A DNA stretch of 64,000 bases from an actinobacterium LLX17. Its GTDB lineage: Bacteria > Actinomycetota > Actinomycetes > Propionibacteriales > Nocardioidaceae. How positions within the stretch are numbered: the first letter of the stretch is position 1; each line of letters starts with the position of its first letter. The position numbers were made by a program, and so were the translations under genes. Shown here in pieces: positions 47,886-58,729 of the stretch. The stretch spans positions 1,930,060 through 1,994,059 of the forward strand of contig KI301992.1 in NCBI GenBank assembly GCA_000471045.1, written 5' to 3'. Below the pieces are notes generated by a model. It worked only from the letters and a program-made list of their open reading frames with translations. It ran no database searches and was not told the origin of the DNA.

Positions 47886-49016
47886 CTAGGGCGTCCCGTC
47901 GGCGAGCGACGCGTAGGCCGGCTTGATGACCTCGTTGATCAAGCTGAGGCGCTCGTCGAACGGCAGGAACGCGCTCTTCATGGCGTTGACCGTGAACCAC
48001 CGCAGGTCGTCGAGACCGTAGTCGAACGCATCGACCAGCAAGGACATCTCCCGGCTCATCGACGTGCCGCTCATCAACCGGTTGTCGCAGTTGACGGTGA
48101 CGCGGAACCCCAGCTCGGCCAACGGACCGATCGGGTGGTCGGCGATCGACGTCATGCCGTGCACCGCATTGGTCTGCAGGTTCGACGAGGGGCACATCTC
48201 CAAAGGGATGCGGGTGTCGCGCACATACGCCGCGAGCCGTCCCAGACGCGGGCCTCCCGGGGCGTCGAAGTCGATGTCGTCGACGATGCGCACACCATGG
48301 CCGAGGCGGTCGGCGCCGCAGCGCTGCACCGCCTGCCAGATCGAGGGCAGCCCGAACGCCTCCCCGGCGTGAATCGTGAAGTGCGCGTTCTCCTGCCTCA
48401 GGTACTCGAACGCCTCCAGGTGCAGGATCGGCGGGAAGCCGTCCTCGGCCCCGGCGATGTCGAAGCCGAAGACCCCGCGGTCGCGGTACTCGACGACGAT
48501 CTCGGCCACCTCACGACCGCGCATCGCGTGCCGCATCGCGGTGAGCAGCTGACCGACGACGATCGTGCGCCCACCCGCGGCAGCCTGGGCGCGACCCTCG
48601 TCGATGCCCGACTGCACGGCCTCCACCGCGTCGCGCAGGCTCAGCCCCGCGCCGGTGTGCTGCTCGGGCGCCCACCGCAGCTCGGCATAGACGACACCGT
48701 CGGCCGCGAGGTCGAGCACGGCCTCCCGCGCGACACGGGCGAGGTCCTCGGGCCGCTGCATGACGGCCACGGTGTGCACGAAGGTCTCGAGGTAGCGCGG
48801 CAGCGAGCCGGAGCTGGCCGCCTCGGCGAACCACTGCCCGAGTCCGGCCTGGTCGGCGACCGGCAGCTCGTGACCGATCTGATCGGCGATCTCGGCGACC
48901 GTGGCCGGCCGCACCCCACCGTCGAGGTGCTCGTGCAGGGCGACCTTCGGCGCAGCGGCGATCTGCCCCGGGGCGACCTTGGGAGCCCCGCCGACAAGCC
49001 CCGTGGTGGGGCTCAC
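47886..49016 (-). CDS. add: Adenosine deaminase
   Basis: A 376-residue zinc enzyme converting adenosine or deoxyadenosine to inosine forms. Motifs: [10 protein letters not shown] (zinc His28 and His30), [10 protein letters not shown] (His, Glu), RLGHGVRI and [13 protein letters not shown] (Asp). GTG at 49016 overlaps the stop of the MaoC gene as GTGA. Its product inosine is the substrate for PunA. Confidence 0.95.
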
Positions 49017-49474
49017 GCGCCCTGCTCCATCAGCAGGGTGACGGTCTCGGCGATGCAGGCGGGCTTCTCGACGCCCTTGATCTCGATCTGGTGCTTCAGC
49101 GTGACCTGCTGGCCCTTGTCGATGTCGCGCACCTCGGTCATCGTGACGCGGTTGCGCACCCGGGCGTCGACCAGCACCGGCGTCATGAACCGCACCTTGT
49201 TGAGCCCGTAGTTGACGCGGGCGAGGTCGCCGGCAAACGCGTAGACCTGCGCCCCGAGGAACGGCAGCAGCGAGAGCGTCAGGTACCCGTGGGCGATCGT
49301 GGCGCCGAACGGCCCCTCGGCCGCGCGCTCGGGATCGACGTGGATCCACTGCCGATCACCGGTGGCGTCCGCGAACAGATCGATGCGCTCCTGGCTGATC
49401 TGGAGCCACTCGCTGACCCCCAGCTCCGTTCCGGCGGCGGCGGCAATCTCTCGGGCGTCGTTCAGGACCTGCAT
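49013..49474 (-). CDS. MaoC-like (R)-enoyl-CoA hydratase
   Basis: A 153-residue hot-dog protein with the hydratase-2 motif [18 protein letters not shown] and [16 protein letters not shown], holding the catalytic Asp and His. It should add water to trans-2-enoyl-CoA. ATG at 49474 is six bases after a TAGGGT box, so it starts its own transcript, with add coupled behind it. A fatty-acid type enzyme at the head of add is odd. Confidence 0.9.
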
Positions 49475-49514: not shown

Positions 49515-50816
49515 TCATCGGTCGATCCGCTGCAGGACGACCTGGCGCGCGCTCGGCTCCTGACCGTCAGGACCGACGGTGATCGCGCCCTCGAGCGCCT
49601 GCTCCGCGCGGGCGAACCGCTCGGGCGTGTCTGTCTGCAGCGTCAGGAGCGGCTGTCCCTCCACCACACGGTCGCCGACTGTGGCGTGCAGGACGACACC
49701 GGCCGCGGCCTGGACCTGCTCGCCCGGGCGCGAGCGTCCGGCGCCCAGCCGCCACGCCGCCACCCCGACCCCCAAGGCGTCGAGACCGGTCAGCACGCCC
49801 GTGGTGGGCGCGGTGACGACCTGGGTCTCGCGCGGGGTCGGCAACGGCGCGTCGGGGTCGCCACCCTGGGCACTGATCATGCGACGCCAGAAGTCCATGG
49901 CGCGACCGTCGGCCAACGCATCGGCCGGATCGACGTCGTCGCGCCCCGCCGCGGCCACCATCTCGCGCGCGAGCGCGATCGTCAGCTCCACGACGTCGCG
50001 CGGTCCCCCGCCGGCCAGCACCTCCACCGACTCGGCGACCTCGACGGCGTTGCCGGCGGTCAGGCCCAGCGGCACCGACATGTCGGTGAGGAGGGCGACC
50101 GTGCGGACACCCGCATCGGTGCCGAGGGCCACCATCGTCTCGGCCAGCTCGGTGGCTTGCTCGAGATCCTTCATGAAGGCGCCGGACCCGACCTTGACGT
50201 CCAGCACCAACGTGCCGGTGCCCTCGGCGATCTTCTTGCTCATGATCGAGCTGGCGATCAACGGGATCGCCTCGACCGTGCCGGTCACGTCGCGCAAGGC
50301 GTACAGCTTCTTGTCGGCCGGGGCGAGTCCCTTGCCAGCCGCGCAGATGACTGCGCCGACGTCCTCGAGCTGCGCCAGGATCTCGGCGTTCGACAGCTCG
50401 GCGCGCCAGCCCGGGATGGCCTCCAGCTTGTCGAGCGTGCCACCGGTGTGCCCGAGGCCGCGGCCCGACAGCTGCGGCACGGCGACGCCGCACGCGGCGA
50501 CGAGCGGCGCCAGCGGCAGGGTGATCTTGTCGCCCACACCACCGGTGGAGTGCTTGTCGGCCGTGGGACGCGAGAGGCTCGAGAAGTCCATCCGCTCGCC
50601 CGAGGCGATCATGGCGGCGGTCCACCGGGCGATCTCGGGGCGCTCCATGCCGTTGAGCAGGATCGCCATCGCCAGGGCCGACATCTGCTCGTCGGCCACG
50701 ACGCCACGGGTGTAGGCGTCGACGACCCAGTCGATCTGCGGGTCGCTCAGTCGACCACCGTCGCGCTTGGTCGCGATGACCTCGACAGCGTCGAAGGCTT
50801 CTGGGGTGTCAGTCAT
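49515..50816 (-). CDS. deoA: Thymidine phosphorylase
   Basis: A 433-residue pyrimidine nucleoside phosphorylase that turns thymidine plus phosphate into thymine and 2-deoxyribose 1-phosphate. Signatures: KHSTGGVGDKITLPLAP, SGRGLGHTGGTLDKLEAIPG and DVKVGSGAFMKDLE. ATG at 50816 overlaps the cytochrome P450 stop by four bases. It belongs to the long coupled operon beginning at the BmpA-type gene. Confidence 0.95.
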   Translation of the reverse strand: MTDTPEAFDAVEVIATKRDGGRLSDPQIDWVVDAYTRGVVADEQMSALAMAILLNGMERPEIARWTAAMIASGERMDFSSLSRPTADKHSTGGVGDKITLPLAPLVAACGVAVPQLSGRGLGHTGGTLDKLEAIPGWRAELSNAEILAQLEDVGAVICAAGKGLAPADKKLYALRDVTGTVEAIPLIASSIMSKKIAEGTGTLVLDVKVGSGAFMKDLEQATELAETMVALGTDAGVRTVALLTDMSVPLGLTAGNAVEVAESVEVLAGGGPRDVVELTIALAREMVAAAGRDDVDPADALADGRAMDFWRRMISAQGGDPDAPLPTPRETQVVTAPTTGVLTGLDALGVGVAAWRLGAGRSRPGEQVQAAAGVVLHATVGDRVVEGQPLLTLQTDTPERFARAEQALEGAITVGPDGQEPSARQVVLQRIDR

Positions 50817-52012
50817 GAGGTTCCGTCCAGGTCGACGATCAGCTTCTCGTAGCCGCGCAGCACCCAGGTGGGCCGGCGGGGCGCCTCGAGCACGGGGCCC
50901 AGGTGCGGGTGCCGTTCCAGCAGGGCCCGCAGGCTGATCTGCAGCTCGAGCCGCGCGAGTGGCGCTCCGAGGCAGAAGTGCAGTCCCATGCCGAACCCGA
51001 CGTGCGGATTGGGGTCGCGGGCGACGTCGAACGTGTCGGCCCGCTCGAAGACGTCGGCATCGCGGTTGGCGGAGCCCATCAGGCAGGCGACGACCTGTCC
51101 CGCCTCGACGACGGTGCCGGCGATCTCGACGTCGGCCGTGGCGGTGCGCTCGAACAGCTGCAGGGGCGCGTCGAAGCGGATCAGCTCCTCCAGCGCGACG
51201 TCGGCGCCCACCTCGCCCGAGATCACGCGGGCCAGCTGGTCGGGATGGTCGAGCAGGGCGGCCATGCCGTTGCCGAAGGTGTTGACCGAGGCCTCGTGAC
51301 CGGCATTGAGCAGCAGGACGACGGTGGCGACGAGCTCGTCGTCACTGAGCTTCTGTCCCGAGTCGCGGGCGGCGATGAGGTCGGTGACCAAGTCGTCGCC
51401 GGGATGATGGCGGCGGTGCTCCACCACGTCGCGCACGTAGGCGGCGAACTGCTCGCTGGCCTCGACCGCCGCAGCGCGGGTGGCCTCGTCGACCGACGGC
51501 TCGTACATGTGCACGATGGCCTGCGACCAGTCGCGCAGTGACTCGTGGTCGTCGCGCGGCACGCCCAGCAGGTCGGCGATGACGAAGACCGGCAGCGGCT
51601 CGGCGTACTCGGCCAGGAGGTCGACCCGCCCGTCGGCGCCATCGCTCAGCCGGTCGGCCATCGACGCGGCGAGGTCCTCGATCCGCGGGCGCAGCCGCTC
51701 GACGTGGCCCCGGCCGAACGCCCCGGCGAGCAGGCGCCGCATGCGGGTGTGCGCCGGCGGCTCGTTCTCCATCAGCTGGTTGCGGTGCAGCGTGTTGAAG
51801 GGCTCCATCTCGCCGGCCGGCTCGAGATCGGTCCAGAGCCGGCCGAGCGCACGGTTGCGCAGCACGGCGCCGACCGCGGCATGGGTCGTGGCGAGCCACC
51901 GCTCGCTGGGCTCGTGCCACAGCAACGGGCCCTGGCGCCGCAGCTCGGCGAGCGCCGGGTACGGGTCGGCGGCGAAGTCGGGATCGGTGAGGTCGAGGGT
52001 CGCGACCGTCAC
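50813..52012 (-). CDS. Cytochrome P450
   Basis: A 399-residue soluble P450 monooxygenase. I-helix LLLNAGHEASVNTFGN (Ser where Thr is usual), ExxR in EELIRF near 272, and haem loop FGMGLHFCLGAPLARLE with the Cys ligand near 347. The start GTG at 52012 overlaps the cdd stop (GTGA), and its stop overlaps deoA (ATGA), so it is translated as part of the pyrimidine salvage set. The substrate is unknown; the placing hints at a nucleoside, base or linked metabolite. No ferredoxin gene is nearby. Confidence 0.93.
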   Translation of the reverse strand: MTVATLDLTDPDFAADPYPALAELRRQGPLLWHEPSERWLATTHAAVGAVLRNRALGRLWTDLEPAGEMEPFNTLHRNQLMENEPPAHTRMRRLLAGAFGRGHVERLRPRIEDLAASMADRLSDGADGRVDLLAEYAEPLPVFVIADLLGVPRDDHESLRDWSQAIVHMYEPSVDEATRAAAVEASEQFAAYVRDVVEHRRHHPGDDLVTDLIAARDSGQKLSDDELVATVVLLLNAGHEASVNTFGNGMAALLDHPDQLARVISGEVGADVALEELIRFDAPLQLFERTATADVEIAGTVVEAGQVVACLMGSANRDADVFERADTFDVARDPNPHVGFGMGLHFCLGAPLARLELQISLRALLERHPHLGPVLEAPRRPTWVLRGYEKLIVDLDGTS

Positions 52013-52443
52013 ACGCGCCCCAGGTCGTCGGCGTCGAACTGCTCGGGCAGCAGCTCGGCCATGGTGCGGACGCCCGACGTCGTCTGCAGCTGCATCGTGG
52101 GACCGCCGTTCTCCCACAGGAGCTGGCGGCACCGACCGCACGGTGTGATGAGCGCGCCCTCGGCGTTGACGCAGACGACGGCGATCAGGCGTCCGCCGCC
52201 GGTGGCGTGCAGGGCCGAGACCATGCCGCACTCGGCGCACAGCGCGACGCCGTAGGCCGCGTTCTCGACGTTGCAGCCCAGCACGACCCGGCCGTCGTCG
52301 ACGAGTCCGGCCGCGCCCACCTTGTACTGCGAGTACGGCGCGTAGGCCCGCTGCATGACCTCGGTGGCGTACCGGGTCAGCGCGGTCCAGTCGATGGGGT
52401 CCTCGGCGCCCGTGATGCCCAGGCCCTTGATGTCGACGGCCAC
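52009..52443 (-). CDS. cdd: Cytidine deaminase
   Basis: A 144-residue homotetramer-type cytidine deaminase. Zinc motif VALCAECGM and TPCGRCRQLLWE give the three Cys ligands and catalytic Glu; GCNVENAAYG binds ribose. Starts at GTG 52443, which shares its first base with the TAG stop of the permease gene (TAGTG), with GAGGGGAGG upstream. Confidence 0.95.
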   Translation of the reverse strand: MAVDIKGLGITGAEDPIDWTALTRYATEVMQRAYAPYSQYKVGAAGLVDDGRVVLGCNVENAAYGVALCAECGMVSALHATGGGRLIAVVCVNAEGALITPCGRCRQLLWENGGPTMQLQTTSGVRTMAELLPEQFDADDLGRV

Positions 52444-53675
52444 TAGCCCGCCTCCCCTCGTCGATAGGATTTTCCGTCGGCCGCGGGCATTCGCAGGTTC
52501 TGCGCGAACACCGCGATGACGAAGAGCGTGATGACGTACGGCGTCATGCCGGTGAAGGATCCGTTGACCTCGTCGGTCGAGAGGTACCAGGCCAGGGTCG
52601 CGACGGCGATGAGCGCCAGGACGATGCCGGTCGTGCGCTCGCCCTTGCGGACCTTGATCACGGCGAAGACCACCAGCAGCACGGCGATGAGCAGCAGCAG
52701 CGCGTGCACCAGCGGACCACTGTTGGGCAGCAGGGTGATGCCGTCGGTGTAGCCGAACATCAACGAGCCGGCCAGCACGCCGCTGGGGCGCCAGTTGCCA
52801 AAGATCATCGCCGCCAGGCCGATGTAGCCACGGCCGCCGGTCTGGCCGACCGAGAACGACGACGACGCCACCATGGTCAGGTAGGCGCCACCGAGTCCGG
52901 CGAACGCGCCGGAGATCAGCACCGCCACGTACTTGTAGCGATAGACGTTGACGCCCAGAGTCTCGGCGGCCTGGGGGTTCTCGCCGCACGACCGCAGCCG
53001 CAGCCCGAAGGCGGTGCGCCACAGGACGTAGGCGGTCAGCGCCACGAGCGCGGCCGTCAGCACCGTCAGCAACGAGATGCGTGTCGTCAGCGCGGCAACT
53101 GCGCCGGCGACGTCGGAGATGACGAACCACTCCTGCTCGGCCAGCTTCAACGCCCCGTCGGAGACCCCGGGCACCGTGATGTTCGGCAACGTGTCGTAGC
53201 CCGACAGGTTGCGCGGACCGCCGCCCTCGAGGTCGTCGAAGAACGTCTTGGCCAGGTAGCCGACCGCGCCGAGACCGATGATGTTGACCGCGACACCCGA
53301 GATGATGTGGTCGACGCCGAACGTCACCGTGGCCACGGCGTGCAGCAGGCCGCCGAGCAGCCCCATGAAGGCGGCGCCGACCAGGCCCATGTACGGGCCG
53401 TAGTGGTAGGCGAAGAACGCCGCCCCCCACGTGCCCAGCAGCATCTGCCCCTCGAGACCGATGTTGACGATGCCGGCGCGCTCGGCCCACAGACCACCGA
53501 TGCCGGCCAGCAGGATGGGGCTGGCACCGATCAGCGCCGCCCGCAGCGTGCCCGGCGCGGTCATCCGCTCCGCACCGGTGACGATGCGGACGACCGACAC
53601 GGTCACGATGACGCCCAGCACGATCAACCACATCGTGTACCGGTACGTCCGGGCCCGCATGACTTCTGCGCTCAT
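52443..53675 (-). CDS. Nucleoside ABC transporter permease (second)
   Basis: A 410-residue BPD_transp_2-type permease with about ten helices. Landmarks: GIGGLWAERAGIVNIGLEGQMLLG, FGVDHIISGVAVNIIGLG and SCGENPQAAETLGVNVYRYK. The extra C-terminal helices (~330-400) are typical of this half of the NupQ/YufQ pair. It overlaps the first permease gene by four bases (ATGA). Confidence 0.92.
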   Translation of the reverse strand: MSAEVMRARTYRYTMWLIVLGVIVTVSVVRIVTGAERMTAPGTLRAALIGASPILLAGIGGLWAERAGIVNIGLEGQMLLGTWGAAFFAYHYGPYMGLVGAAFMGLLGGLLHAVATVTFGVDHIISGVAVNIIGLGAVGYLAKTFFDDLEGGGPRNLSGYDTLPNITVPGVSDGALKLAEQEWFVISDVAGAVAALTTRISLLTVLTAALVALTAYVLWRTAFGLRLRSCGENPQAAETLGVNVYRYKYVAVLISGAFAGLGGAYLTMVASSSFSVGQTGGRGYIGLAAMIFGNWRPSGVLAGSLMFGYTDGITLLPNSGPLVHALLLLIAVLLVVFAVIKVRKGERTTGIVLALIAVATLAWYLSTDEVNGSFTGMTPYVITLFVIAVFAQNLRMPAADGKSYRRGEAG

Positions 53676-54756
53676 GCTGAGACCCCCTCCCGCTCGGCGT
53701 CGAGCTGTCGGGCGACCCGCTCCTGCTCGGCCTGGGCGCGGCGCCGGCCGACGACGGCGTAGGCGACGACGACCGCCAGCACGACGATGCCCTGCGTGAT
53801 GTCGACGACCTCCTTGGCGATGCCCTCCTGCTGCAGGGCGTTGGACTGCCCGGCCAGGAAGGCGAACAGCACGGCACCCACGAAGATGCCGATCGTCCGG
53901 TTGCGACCCAGCAGTGCGACCGCGAGTCCGGTGAAGCCCAGGCCCGCCTGGAAGTTCTCCGGGGGGCCGAAGCTGTGCACCGAGCCGAAGAAGGCCGGCA
54001 TCCACACCAGGCCCGCGACGGCTCCCGAGAGCGCCATCACGATCAGCACCATGCGACCAACACTGACACCGCTCGCCAGGGCTGCCGAGGTGGACTCGCC
54101 CGTCGCGCGCAGGTCGAAGCCGAAGCGGGTGCGGCTCATCAGGAACCAGTACCCGACACCCACGATGACCGCGAGGGTCGACAGCGCCCAGACGTCGCCG
54201 GGTGCGTTGGGGAAGAGGTTGAAGCCGAGCGGCTGGCTGCTGGGCGGGATCTCGGCGGTGACGTACGTGTAGCCGCTGGTCTCGCCGTACCGGGCGACCA
54301 GGTAGCCGGCCATCGTCAACGCGATGTAGTTGAGCATGATCGCGCTGATGACCTCGCTGACACCGCGCCCAACCTTCAGCAGCGCGGCGATCAGGGCGTA
54401 GCCGGCACCGGCCAGCATCGCGACGACGAGCGTCACGAGGATGTTCAGCGGTCCGGGCACCAGGCCGCTGCCGGCGAAGAACGCCCCGGCACAGGCGCCC
54501 ACGGTGTACTGGCCCTCGACGCCGATGTTGAACAGGCCCATGCGGAAGCAGATCGCTGCGGCGAACGCCGAGAGCGAGAGCATCGCGCTCTGGTTGATGA
54601 TCGTGATGAGCACGCGCTCGTTGGGCACCGAGAAGATCGTGGCGACGAAGTCGACGGCCGAGCCGCCCGAGACGGCGATGACGAGGCTGGTCGCCGCCAT
54701 CGCGCCGAGCACGGCGACGAGCGGGGGCACGATCGCCCCGACGATGCTGGAGCGCT

Positions 54757-54760
<4 letters not shown>
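53672..54760 (-). CDS. Nucleoside ABC transporter permease (first)
   Basis: A 362-residue permease. Landmarks: FRMGLFNIGVEGQYTVGA, VGRGVSEVISAIMLNYIAL and LRATGESTSAALASGVSVGRM. It pairs with the following permease to form the channel. ATG at 54760 overlaps the stop of the ATPase gene. Confidence 0.92.
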
Positions 54761-56262
<1,502 letters not shown>

Positions 56263-56300
56263 CGGGTCATCCTCTCGCACGATGGGTCCGCGGACACGCG

Positions 56301-56334
56301 CGACCGGCCGCCTCGGGTGCGAGACGGCCGGTCG
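56301..56334. terminator. Hairpin between binding-protein and ATPase genes
   Basis: CGACCGGCCG (56301-56310) pairs perfectly with CGGCCGGTCG (56325-56334) around a 14-base loop. It lies just after the binding-protein stop codon. It probably acts as a partial stop or an mRNA end protector, so that more binding protein than transporter is made. Confidence 0.65.
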
Positions 56335-56344
56335 GGCGAATGAC

Positions 56345-57424
56345 CTACGGCTCGGTCGGGACCTCGACGTCACCGGAGATGATGTCGGCCTTGTACTTCT
56401 CCAGCTCGGCGATCGTCTCGGGGGTCAGGAACCCACCGGACTCGCTGTAGCCCACGCCCTCGTCGGCCAGGGTGAAGGTCGTGAAGCCCTGGTCCGGCTC
56501 GCCGTTGACGGCCGACTCGATGAAGCCGAACGTCGCGGTGTCGACGCGCTTGAGCATCGAGGTGAGGATGCGGGGCTTCTGCGCCTCGCTGGCGGTCAGG
56601 AACTGGTCGGAGTCGACGCCGATGGCCAGCATGTCGGCCTCGACGGCGGCGTCGAAGACACCCGAGCCCGAGGCTCCGGCAGCGTGGAACACGATGTCCG
56701 CGCCCTCGCTGTAGAGACCCTGGGCGGCAGCCTTGCCACCCGCGGGGTCCTGGAAGCCCTTGGTGTCCTTCTCCTCGATGTACGTGGAGGTGACCTCGAC
56801 GTCGGGGTCGGCCGCCTTGGCGCCGGCCTCGAAGCCCGCCTCGAACTTCTGGATCAGCGGGTTGTTGACGCCACCGACGAAGCCCAGCTGACCGGTCTCG
56901 GACTGCAGCGCAGCCGCAGCACCGACGAGGTAGGAGCCCTCGTGCTCGGCGAAGCCGAGGTAGGCGACGTTGCAGTTGACGTCGTCCTCGGTCGGGTCGA
57001 AGCCGTCGATGACGCCGAACGAGACGTTGGGGTACTCGGGGGCCACGGTGTCGATCGCGGTGCTGTAGGCGAAGCCGACGCCCACGATGACGTTGTGGCC
57101 GGCGTCGGCGAAGGTGCGCAGGCGCTCCTCGCGGACCTCCTCCGGCTCGTCCTGGGCGGCCTCGCCCTCGGTGACCTCGGCAATGCCGAGCTCGGTCTGC
57201 GCGCGCTCGAGACCCGCGTAGGCGGAGTCGTTGAACGACTGGTCGCCACGGCCACCCACGTCGTACGCGAGGCCGACCTTGACGTCACCCTCGATCTGGA
57301 CCGGGTCGCACTTCGCCTCGACCTCGTCGTTGGCGTTGTCCTCGTCGTCGGCCGCGGTGCCACACGCGGACAGGATCAGACCACACGTCGCGACAGCGAC
57401 GCCGTACTTGGCCAGTCGACGCAC
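56345..57424 (-). CDS. BmpA/PnrA-type nucleoside-binding lipoprotein
   Basis: A 359-residue solute-binding lipoprotein. Signal and lipobox LILSACG (near 18-24), then an acidic stretch and the BMP fold: VGLAYDVGGRGDQSFNDSAYAGL, GVGFAYSTAID, FGVIDGFDP, GQLGFVGGVNNPLIQKFEAGF, ADIVFHAAGASGSGVF and AIGVDSDQ. In other bacteria these bind purine or pyrimidine nucleosides. GTG at 57424 with GAGGAGG just before. It heads the transporter-cdd-P450-deoA operon. Confidence 0.93.
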   Translation of the reverse strand: MRRLAKYGVAVATCGLILSACGTAADDEDNANDEVEAKCDPVQIEGDVKVGLAYDVGGRGDQSFNDSAYAGLERAQTELGIAEVTEGEAAQDEPEEVREERLRTFADAGHNVIVGVGFAYSTAIDTVAPEYPNVSFGVIDGFDPTEDDVNCNVAYLGFAEHEGSYLVGAAAALQSETGQLGFVGGVNNPLIQKFEAGFEAGAKAADPDVEVTSTYIEEKDTKGFQDPAGGKAAAQGLYSEGADIVFHAAGASGSGVFDAAVEADMLAIGVDSDQFLTASEAQKPRILTSMLKRVDTATFGFIESAVNGEPDQGFTTFTLADEGVGYSESGGFLTPETIAELEKYKADIISGDVEVPTEP

Positions 57425-57562: not shown

Positions 57563-58729
57563 TCAGGAGACGGCGGCGGCAGCGAGCACGCGGGCGCCGA
57601 TGGCGACGGCGCGCTCGTCGACGCGGAGGTTGCCCTGGTGCAGGTCGTACGTGGGGCCGTCCGGCGTGCGGGTGCCGAGCCGGCCCATCGCACCGGGCAC
57701 CGCCTCGACGTACCAAGCGAAGTCCTCGCCGCCGAGACTCTGGGACGTGCTGGCGACACCGCTGGGCCCGATGACCTCGGTGACCGCGCGGCGCATCGTC
57801 TCGGTGGCGGCGAAGTCGTTGACCACGGGCGGCACGCCGCGCACGTAGAGCACGTCGGCGCTGACGCCCCACGGTTCGATGATGTCGGCGATCAGGCCCC
57901 GCACGAGGTGCTCGGCCTCGTGCCAGGCGGCGGCGTCGAGCATGCGCAGGGTGCCGGTGAGCTCGCCGGTGGCGGGGATGACGTTGGCCGCGTGCCCGGC
58001 ACTGAGCTGGCCCCAGACCATCGAGGCGCCCGCGCGGGGGTCGAAGCGGCGTGACAGCACCGCCGGCAGCTGCGTGACGAGGCTGGCCAGGGCGTAGGTG
58101 AGGTCCTCGGTGAGGTGGGGCCGGGAGGTGTGTCCGCCCCGACCGCTCAGGGTCACGTGGATGCGGTCCGACGCCCCGGTGATGGGGCCCTCGCGCAGGC
58201 CGACCTGGCCGACGTCGAGCGAGGGGTCGCAGTGCAGCGCGAAGATGCGCGAGACGCCCTTGAGCACGCCGAGCGAGAGGAGCTTGAGCGCTCCCCCGGG
58301 CATGACCTCCTCGGCGGGCTGGAAGATCAGCCGTACCCGGACGGGCAGCCGGTGGGCGGCGTGCGCCTCGGCGAGCGCCGCGCCGGCACCGACGAGCGCA
58401 GCCACGTGCACGTCGTGCCCACAGGCGTGCGCCACGTTGGGCACGGTGGAACGCCAGGGGTCCTGGGTGGTGTCGGGGATCGGCAGGGCGTCGAGGTCGG
58501 CGCGCAGCGCGACGATCGGTCCGTCCTCCCGGCCGACCTCGGCCACCAGGCCGGTGCCGGGCAGGCGGTGGTGCTCGATGCCGTACTTGTCCATCCACCG
58601 GGCGACCGTGTCGGTCGTGCGGTCCTCGTTCCAGGACAGCTCGGGGCTGGAGTGGACGTCGCGGCGCAGCTCGATCAGGTCGGGCGTGATCGTGTCGATC
58701 GTGCGCGTCAGTGACTCCAGCAGGGGCAT
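57563..58729 (-). CDS. M20D-family amidohydrolase
   Basis: A 388-residue metal-dependent amidohydrolase: ELRRDVHSSPELSWNE, HACGHDVHVAALVGA (Cys and His metal ligands), FQPAEEVMPGGALKLL and SLGGEDFAWYVEAVPGAMGRLG. It removes acyl or aminoacyl groups from small amides; in M. tuberculosis two such genes (amiA1/amiB1) lie near lpdA and punA. ATG at 58729 is six bases after a TATCCT box. Confidence 0.9.
   Translation of the reverse strand: MPLLESLTRTIDTITPDLIELRRDVHSSPELSWNEDRTTDTVARWMDKYGIEHHRLPGTGLVAEVGREDGPIVALRADLDALPIPDTTQDPWRSTVPNVAHACGHDVHVAALVGAGAALAEAHAAHRLPVRVRLIFQPAEEVMPGGALKLLSLGVLKGVSRIFALHCDPSLDVGQVGLREGPITGASDRIHVTLSGRGGHTSRPHLTEDLTYALASLVTQLPAVLSRRFDPRAGASMVWGQLSAGHAANVIPATGELTGTLRMLDAAAWHEAEHLVRGLIADIIEPWGVSADVLYVRGVPPVVNDFAATETMRRAVTEVIGPSGVASTSQSLGGEDFAWYVEAVPGAMGRLGTRTPDGPTYDLHQGNLRVDERAVAIGARVLAAAAVS

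What the first reader, a model, noticed from the sequence alone, without database searches (positions are those of the whole stretch)
50813..52443. Cytochrome P450 locked into a pyrimidine salvage operon
cdd, P450 and deoA are joined by GTGA and ATGA overlaps behind a nucleoside ABC importer. A P450 here is unexpected: it implies oxidation of a nucleoside, base or sugar brought in by the importer, or a shared need for the operon's signal. No electron-transfer partner is encoded nearby. The I-helix has Ser in place of the usual Thr.
Basis: partly seen in the sequence, partly recalled or inferred. Interest (0 to 1): 0.75.

Follow-up and report, generated by a model that had tools for sequence, protein, structure and literature searches.

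The report
Cytochrome P450 inside nucleoside salvage operons
Many actinobacteria carry, within or near their genes for importing and recycling nucleosides, one particular oxidising enzyme (a cytochrome P450) that comes and goes with one kind of nucleoside importer, which suggests an unrecognised oxidation step in nucleoside recycling.

Summary
One detail is wrong: the conserved I-helix Thr is Ala (AGHEASVN); Ser is the next residue.

It is not a strain oddity. In the window's family, 91 of 91 genomes whose P450 locus I read have cdd-P450-deoA. Relatives of this P450 sit in other nucleoside-gene arrangements in freshwater acI-like lineages, Jatrophihabitans, Sporichthyaceae and Pseudonocardiales. 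But 51 of 80 named loci show no cdd, deoA or ada nearby.

New: the operon exists with two distinct importers, and the P450 goes with type A. Family table: P450+/A 108, P450+/B 1, P450-/A 5, P450-/B 76, no importer match 7. On a deoA tree both switch together, though partly as one DNA block. Outside the family, 101 of 107 P450+ genomes have A, 0 only B, 6 no match.

Best reading: the P450 oxidises a nucleoside, or its first product, taken up by importer A; dealkylation of modified RNA nucleosides is my committed guess. The substrate is unproven. Text searches found no earlier report.

The parts
57563..58729 (-). M20-family amidohydrolase, upstream neighbour
   Evidence: Pfam PF01546, NCBIfam TIGR01891 over cut-off; conserved neighbour in many family loci
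56345..57424 (-). BMP-type lipoprotein, nucleoside-binding protein of importer type A (GTG start at 57424; searches used 56345-57421)
   Evidence: Pfam PF02608 208.4 bits; nearest solved chains Lbp 7x0r, TmpC 2fqw
54757..56262 (-). importer ATPase with two ABC domains
   Evidence: Pfam PF00005, two stretches
53672..54760 (-). importer permease 1; GTGA overlap with ATPase
   Evidence: Pfam PF02653; overlap
52443..53675 (-). importer permease 2; ATGA overlap with permease 1
   Evidence: Pfam PF02653; overlap
52009..52443 (-). cdd, cytidine deaminase; TAGTG overlap with permease 2
   Evidence: NCBIfam NF004064 and TIGR01354 over cut-off; overlap
50813..52012 (-). cytochrome P450, 399 aa, I helix AGHEASVN; GTGA overlap with cdd, ATGA overlap with deoA
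   Evidence: Pfam PF00067 over cut-off; translation; overlaps
49515..50816 (-). deoA, thymidine / pyrimidine-nucleoside phosphorylase
   Evidence: NCBIfam NF004490 and TIGR02644 over cut-off
49013..49474 (-). MaoC-like dehydratase, in the operon in this genus, elsewhere often on the other strand
   Evidence: Pfam PF01575; positions
47886..49016 (-). ada, adenosine deaminase; GTGA overlap with the MaoC gene
   Evidence: NCBIfam NF006847 and TIGR01430 over cut-off; overlap

Best explanation
The P450 is a working part of a nucleoside salvage pathway. Shown: a PnrA/TmpC-like importer (type A), cdd, P450, deoA and ada are laid out as one coupled operon, and the P450 tracks importer A. Inferred: importer A brings in nucleosides, some of which the salvage enzymes cannot use, and the P450 oxidises these to a usable form. 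My committed guess for the chemistry is oxidative removal of a methyl or other alkyl group from modified RNA nucleosides (2'-O-methyl, N-methyl or N6-isopentenyl kinds); a methyl on the ribose or the amino group would block phosphorylase or deaminase, and P450 dealkylation would release it. Ala in place of the I-helix Thr suggests that a hydroxyl of the substrate, such as one of the ribose, takes part in oxygen activation, as recalled for EryF. Electrons would come from ferredoxins encoded elsewhere. The confidence is for 'a nucleoside or its first product is the substrate'; for the dealkylation alone I would say about 0.25.
For: Same order in 91 of 91 family genomes read. P450 and importer type co-segregate in 197 family genomes: +/A 108, +/B 1, +/none 2, -/A 5, -/B 76, -/none 5; both combinations occur within eight genera. 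Of the five -/A genomes one has a P450 broken over two frames in place (G046), one truly lacks it (G007), and three end at a contig edge before the place could be seen. 31 type-B genomes and G007 were read: cdd and deoA without P450 in the stretch. On a deoA tree of 95 genomes P450 needs 21 changes and importer type 22; 6 independent pairs on well-supported branches go the same way in 5.9 of 6 on average, median p 0.03. Other arrangements: permease-P450-cdd-deoA (L109), cdd-deoA-ada-P450 (L087, L112, L115 and others), cdd-ada-P450 (L141, L146, L244), P450 divergent from importer A (L241), P450 behind purine-nucleoside phosphorylase (L135). In acI-like loci ribokinase, deoC and a nucleoside hydrolase follow. 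Two of four complete small genomes checked have this as their only P450. Substrate-contact segments are more conserved than the rest: 0.66 against 0.52, control P450 family 0.56 against 0.53.
Against: No substrate is shown. 51 of 80 named loci (a capped list of the best 80) and 18 of 20 class loci have no cdd, deoA or ada in the stretch, and their neighbours are unrelated housekeeping or regulatory genes. G072 keeps the P450 with importer B; five genomes of one genus and G472 have the P450 and no match to the importer protein. 42 genomes outside the family have importer A and no P450 found. cdd partly moves with the importer (9 changes on the cdd tree against 22 on the deoA tree), so co-segregation is partly physical linkage. 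The conservation contrast is modest, with segment borders set by me.
Confidence: 0.55

Rival explanations
1. Gatekeeper: the P450 inactivates toxic nucleoside analogues or nucleoside antibiotics that importer A lets in.
For: Presence with one importer type and scattered loss would fit a protective enzyme; many soil actinobacteria meet such compounds (general knowledge).
Against: Retention as the only P450 in two of four small complete genomes checked and well-conserved substrate-contact segments fit one fixed substrate better than variable toxins.
Confidence: 0.15
2. The P450 acts on a product of nucleoside breakdown, a base such as thymine or uracil, or a deoxyribose-derived aldehyde, and so opens an oxidative catabolic branch.
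For: Neighbours include phosphorylases, hydrolases, deoC and aldehyde dehydrogenase genes in acI-like loci.
Against: Importer-type dependence is not expected if the substrate arises from every nucleoside; no oxidative pyrimidine enzyme such as barbiturase was searched for.
Confidence: 0.15
3. Passenger: the P450 has another, general function and merely shares the operon's expression or travels with the importer block.
For: Most named loci outside the operon lineages lack nucleoside neighbours; cdd, importer and P450 partly move as a block; G072 keeps it with importer B.
Against: At least five changes of linkage forced by well-supported branches of the P450 tree (eight on the best tree), with several different nucleoside-gene arrangements, and no genome with only importer B among 107 P450+ genomes outside the family.
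Confidence: 0.15

Closest known systems
EryF (CYP107A1) and PikC (CYP107L1), macrolide-oxidising P450s
   Same: Among the nearest named solved P450s (PikC 250 bits, EryF 217 bits). EryF is recalled to have Ala in place of the I-helix Thr, with a substrate hydroxyl taking its place.
   Different: Gene context is nucleoside import and salvage, not antibiotic synthesis; PikC is far below the nearest chain 8yhn; the window protein is below all NCBIfam P450 cut-offs.
PDB 8yhn, unnamed 'Cytochrome P450'
   Same: Nearest solved chain (372.8 bits to the window P450; 737.9 bits to the free-standing Streptomyces-group member L096). It has AGHEATVN. It is probably a member of this family.
   Different: It belongs to the free-standing branch; its function is not stated in the listing and no held paper names it.
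PnrA / TmpC / BMP-type nucleoside ABC importers with cdd and deoA
   Same: Binding protein, ATPase with two ABC domains and two permeases beside cdd, deoA and ada.
   Different: A P450 lies between cdd and deoA, and the operon occurs with two importer kinds of which one carries the P450.
FasA P450 of the Rhodococcus fas operon (recalled; only listings seen)
   Same: A P450 that oxidises an adenine derivative (cytokinin), by recall.
   Different: Biosynthetic plant-hormone operon; no sequence comparison was made here.

Membership tests
Cytochrome P450 superfamily | Pfam PF00067 over its curated cut-off | tested here: met
   97.4 bits against 22.8
Cytochrome P450 superfamily | heme-cysteine loop and ExxR motif | tested here: met
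   C347 in FGMGLHFCLG, E276-R279, conserved in the 19-row alignment
Cytochrome P450 superfamily | I-helix acid-threonine pair (usual, not defining) | tested here: not met
   Ala in 91 of 91 family rows at the Thr position; Thr in 17 of 17 control rows
CYP107 family | at least 40% identity to a named CYP107 member | not tested
   PikC and EryF are in the hit list, but identity to them was not computed
EryF-like substrate-assisted P450 | substrate hydroxyl replaces the Thr in oxygen activation | not testable with these tools
   Ala at the position; mechanism recalled for EryF
BMP/PnrA-type nucleoside importer | BMP lipoprotein with ABC ATPase and two PF02653 permeases | tested here: met
BMP/PnrA-type nucleoside importer | binds nucleosides | not testable with these tools
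   inferred from similarity to TmpC and related chains
Nucleoside salvage operon | cytidine deaminase, pyrimidine-nucleoside phosphorylase and adenosine deaminase over curated cut-offs | tested here: met

The most novel reading that the evidence does not exclude
A P450-dependent step of nucleoside salvage: actinobacteria, including abundant freshwater acI-like lineages, use one dedicated P450 to strip alkyl marks from modified RNA nucleosides taken up by importer A, so that a monooxygenase is a core enzyme of nucleic-acid scavenging.
Probability: 0.25. Interest if true: 0.85.

Novelty: new variant of a known kind. Interest (0 to 1): 0.7.

Why it matters
Bacterial P450s are mostly known from secondary metabolism and from the breakdown of hydrophobic compounds. 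A P450 kept in primary nucleoside scavenging, even in 1.3-1.5 Mb genomes, would point to an unrecorded reaction in the recycling of RNA or DNA, give a function to a large unassigned P450 family, and explain why one operon exists with two importers. It is directly testable with purified protein and commercial nucleosides.

Tried and rejected
Rejected: that the order is peculiar to one strain. Rejected: that genes inserted between P450 and deoA in some genomes supply a partner; they differ from genome to genome (by eye: a CPBP-like membrane protein, an MFS-like transporter, a globin-like protein; no family search was run on them). Looked for a constant partner of the free-standing P450s: 69 loci without cdd, deoA or ada clustered by neighbour; the largest neighbour cluster covers 15 of 69 and the ones searched are housekeeping or regulatory. 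The 15-locus cluster's representative hits complex I subunit D models. Two-component regulators lie upstream in the Streptomyces group. No substrate clue came from these.

The first conservation figures (0.65 against 0.49, control 0.47 against 0.47) overstated the contrast, because the control had gaps in one segment; columns filled in 90% of both sets give 0.66/0.52 and 0.56/0.53.

Fisher tests are not used: genomes are related. The handle lists and genus codes were copied by hand. Class searches scored only the 4 or 5 best candidates of each genome, so P450-negative calls in P450-rich genomes may be misses. Importer type was read from the best BMP match anywhere in a genome, not only beside cdd.

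Papers: searches gave none joining a P450 to nucleoside salvage genes (open-licence PMC only). Passages only were seen of PMC5301498 (no 'P450' in it; three of four acI strains have these salvage enzymes, C1 lacks several) and PMC6408508. The rest were listings.

Full report
What is there. On the minus strand the window carries an M20 amidohydrolase (58729-57563), a BMP-type lipoprotein (57424-56345), an ABC ATPase (56262-54757), two permeases (54760-53672, 53675-52443), cdd (52443-52009), a P450 (52012-50813), deoA (50816-49515), a MaoC-like gene (49474-49013) and ada (49016-47886). From the ATPase to deoA each gene overlaps the next: GTGA, ATGA, TAGTG, GTGA, ATGA. The P450 is intact. The genome is 3.0 Mb, complete and in one contig, and has 7 P450 genes by my reading of 11 matched pieces. 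It is most likely an Aeromicrobium: a same-genus genome has a contig of the same length (223,722) as Aeromicrobium flavum NZ_BJZQ01000003.1. Six Fer2 matches and one Fer4_15 match lie outside the window; the Fer4_15 match is some 120 bases from another P450 match, and one Fer2 match about 1 kb from a third.

The I helix. The sequence is LLLNAGHEASVN. Position 241, where other P450s have Thr, is Ala in 91 of 91 diverse family members, and position 242 is Ser in 83 and Thr in 8; a control P450 family from the same search has Thr at 241 in 17 of 17. I recall the same replacement in EryF, where a substrate hydroxyl does the work; that was not tested here.

Spread in the family. A protein search in 197 genomes of the window's family gives two clearly separate score groups. 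I count 111 P450+ genomes, two of them by contig-edge fragments (G017, G051). I read the P450 locus in 90 of these 111, and in G046, where the gene is broken over two frames; all 91 have cdd before and deoA after it. The remaining 21 were not read.

Two importers. Genomes without the P450 also have importer, cdd and deoA together, but the importer is another kind: binding protein mostly about 27-34% identical to the window's, against 46-69% in P450+ loci outside the closest relatives; ATPases of the two kinds are about 46% identical. With the binding protein as query the best E-values fall in two groups with a gap between 1e-56 and 1e-38. Family table: P450+/A 108, P450+/B 1, P450+/no match 2, P450-/A 5, P450-/B 76, P450-/no match 5. 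Of the five P450-/A genomes G046 has the broken gene, G007 lacks it, and in G022, G039 and G032 the contig ends before the place can be seen; the P450+/B genome G072 has cdd-P450-deoA behind a B importer. B itself comes in two orientations, forming two groups in the ATPase tree, and neither read set has the P450 except G072. Both combinations occur within genera g2, g5, g7, g12, g13, g14, g23 and g24.

Is it only kinship? On a deoA tree of 95 family genomes (genus g1 thinned to 12) P450 needs 21 changes and importer type 22. Six independent pairs rest on well-supported branches; importer type goes the same way in 5.9 of 6 on average and never the other way, median p 0.03. In one close pair, G034 and G012, deoA is very similar while one has A with P450 and the other B without. 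On the cdd tree (96 rows) the changes drop to 9 for importer and 12 for P450, so importer, cdd and P450 often move as one block. The link in the family is therefore partly physical.

Outside the family. Among 357 class genomes outside the family: P450+/A 101, P450+/only B 0, P450+/no match 6 (G472 and five genomes of genus g73), P450-/A 42, P450-/only B 96, P450-/no match 112. In a family of small genomes (f29) the split is 15 P450+/A, 22 P450-/B, 2 P450-/A. The P450 thus occurs almost only where importer A occurs, while A often occurs without it. In most class loci read the P450 is not beside the importer, so linkage cannot explain this, but kinship can in part: in Streptomyces (f22) every BMP-bearing genome has A (33 P450+, 6 P450-), and in f21 five P450+ genomes have no importer match. 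Only the 4-5 best candidates per genome were scored.

Gene order elsewhere. 29 of 80 have cdd, deoA or ada in the stretch: 14 of 14 Nocardioidaceae, all named Nanopelagicales (3 of 3), single loci of Jatrophihabitans, Sporichthyaceae and Pseudonocardiales, and others; none of 11 Geodermatophilaceae, 7 Micromonosporaceae or 5 Intrasporangiaceae, and 1 of 14 labelled Streptomycetaceae. Arrangements differ: cdd-P450-deoA; permease-P450-cdd-deoA (L109); cdd-deoA-ada-P450 followed by ribokinase, nucleoside hydrolase, deoC, a sugar-phosphate mutase-like gene and purine-nucleoside phosphorylase (L087 and kin); cdd-ada-P450 with uridine-phosphorylase-like genes (L141, L146, L244); P450 behind purine-nucleoside phosphorylase (L135); P450 divergent from importer A (L241). 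Of these neighbours purine-nucleoside phosphorylase, deoC and ribokinase pass curated cut-offs; the hydrolases, the uridine phosphorylase and the mutase fall below theirs. The P450 tree (91 family rows and 3 distant rows) needs 8 changes between linked and free, at least 5 on well-supported branches.

Pocket. Segments that I took as substrate contacts (from general P450 knowledge) have mean pairwise identity 0.66 against 0.52 for the rest; a control P450 family has 0.56 against 0.53. Invariant or nearly invariant residues there include the run WSQAIVxMYE and the polar N236. This is modest support for one fixed substrate.

How it likely works. Importer A (similar to nucleoside-binding TmpC) brings nucleosides in; cdd, deoA and ada convert ordinary ones. 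A P450 made at a fixed ratio with them would convert nucleosides, or a first product, that these enzymes cannot use. Dealkylation of modified RNA nucleosides is the guess I commit to: it gives P450 chemistry a purpose in an otherwise hydrolytic and phosphorolytic pathway, and a ribose hydroxyl could replace the missing Thr. Shown: anatomy, conservation, co-segregation. Inferred: import of nucleosides, substrate, chemistry, electron donors. None of four small genomes checked has a Fer4_15 ferredoxin, though all have Fer2 matches, so the donor is open.

Novelty. The searches of open-licence full text named in Tried and rejected found no paper joining a P450 with cdd, deoA or nucleoside salvage; subscription papers are not covered. 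The family has one probable solved member, 8yhn, of unstated function. I file it as a new variant of a known kind: a known operon type and a known superfamily in an unreported combination with importer-type dependence.

Noticed in passing
window 52443-57424; L196, L210-L227, L229, L279-L289: The cdd-deoA operon of this family is found with two distinct importer cassettes (A and B), exchanged many times; B occurs in two orientations.
   Followed up: yes
L231:6322-7477: In G046 the operon P450 is broken over two reading frames (a true loss in progress or a sequencing error).
   Followed up: partly
L230: G072 keeps cdd-P450-deoA but has importer B.
   Followed up: partly
L087, L141, L146, L244: acI-like small genomes have a larger nucleoside-use island around the P450: deoC, nucleoside hydrolase, purine or uridine phosphorylase genes, and ribokinase in part of them.
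   Followed up: partly
L103:6134-7324: A contig labelled Janibacter limosus holds an Aeromicrobium-like P450 (69% to the window) without the operon; transfer or mixed assembly.
   Followed up: no
L135, L163, L123: MAG records labelled Gulosibacter, Bifidobacterium and Streptomycetaceae have loci resembling small freshwater actinobacteria; labels may be wrong.
   Followed up: no
L095 and genus g73 (G397, G540, G619, G654, G668): Five genomes carry the P450 but gave no match to the importer binding protein.
   Followed up: no
L120, L127, L133, L134, L149, just upstream of the P450: In Aquiluna-like loci a nitroreductase-family gene lies directly before the P450; a possible partner, not examined further.
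   Followed up: no
L050:7039-7590: A globin-like gene (by eye) sits between P450 and deoA in one genome.
   Followed up: no
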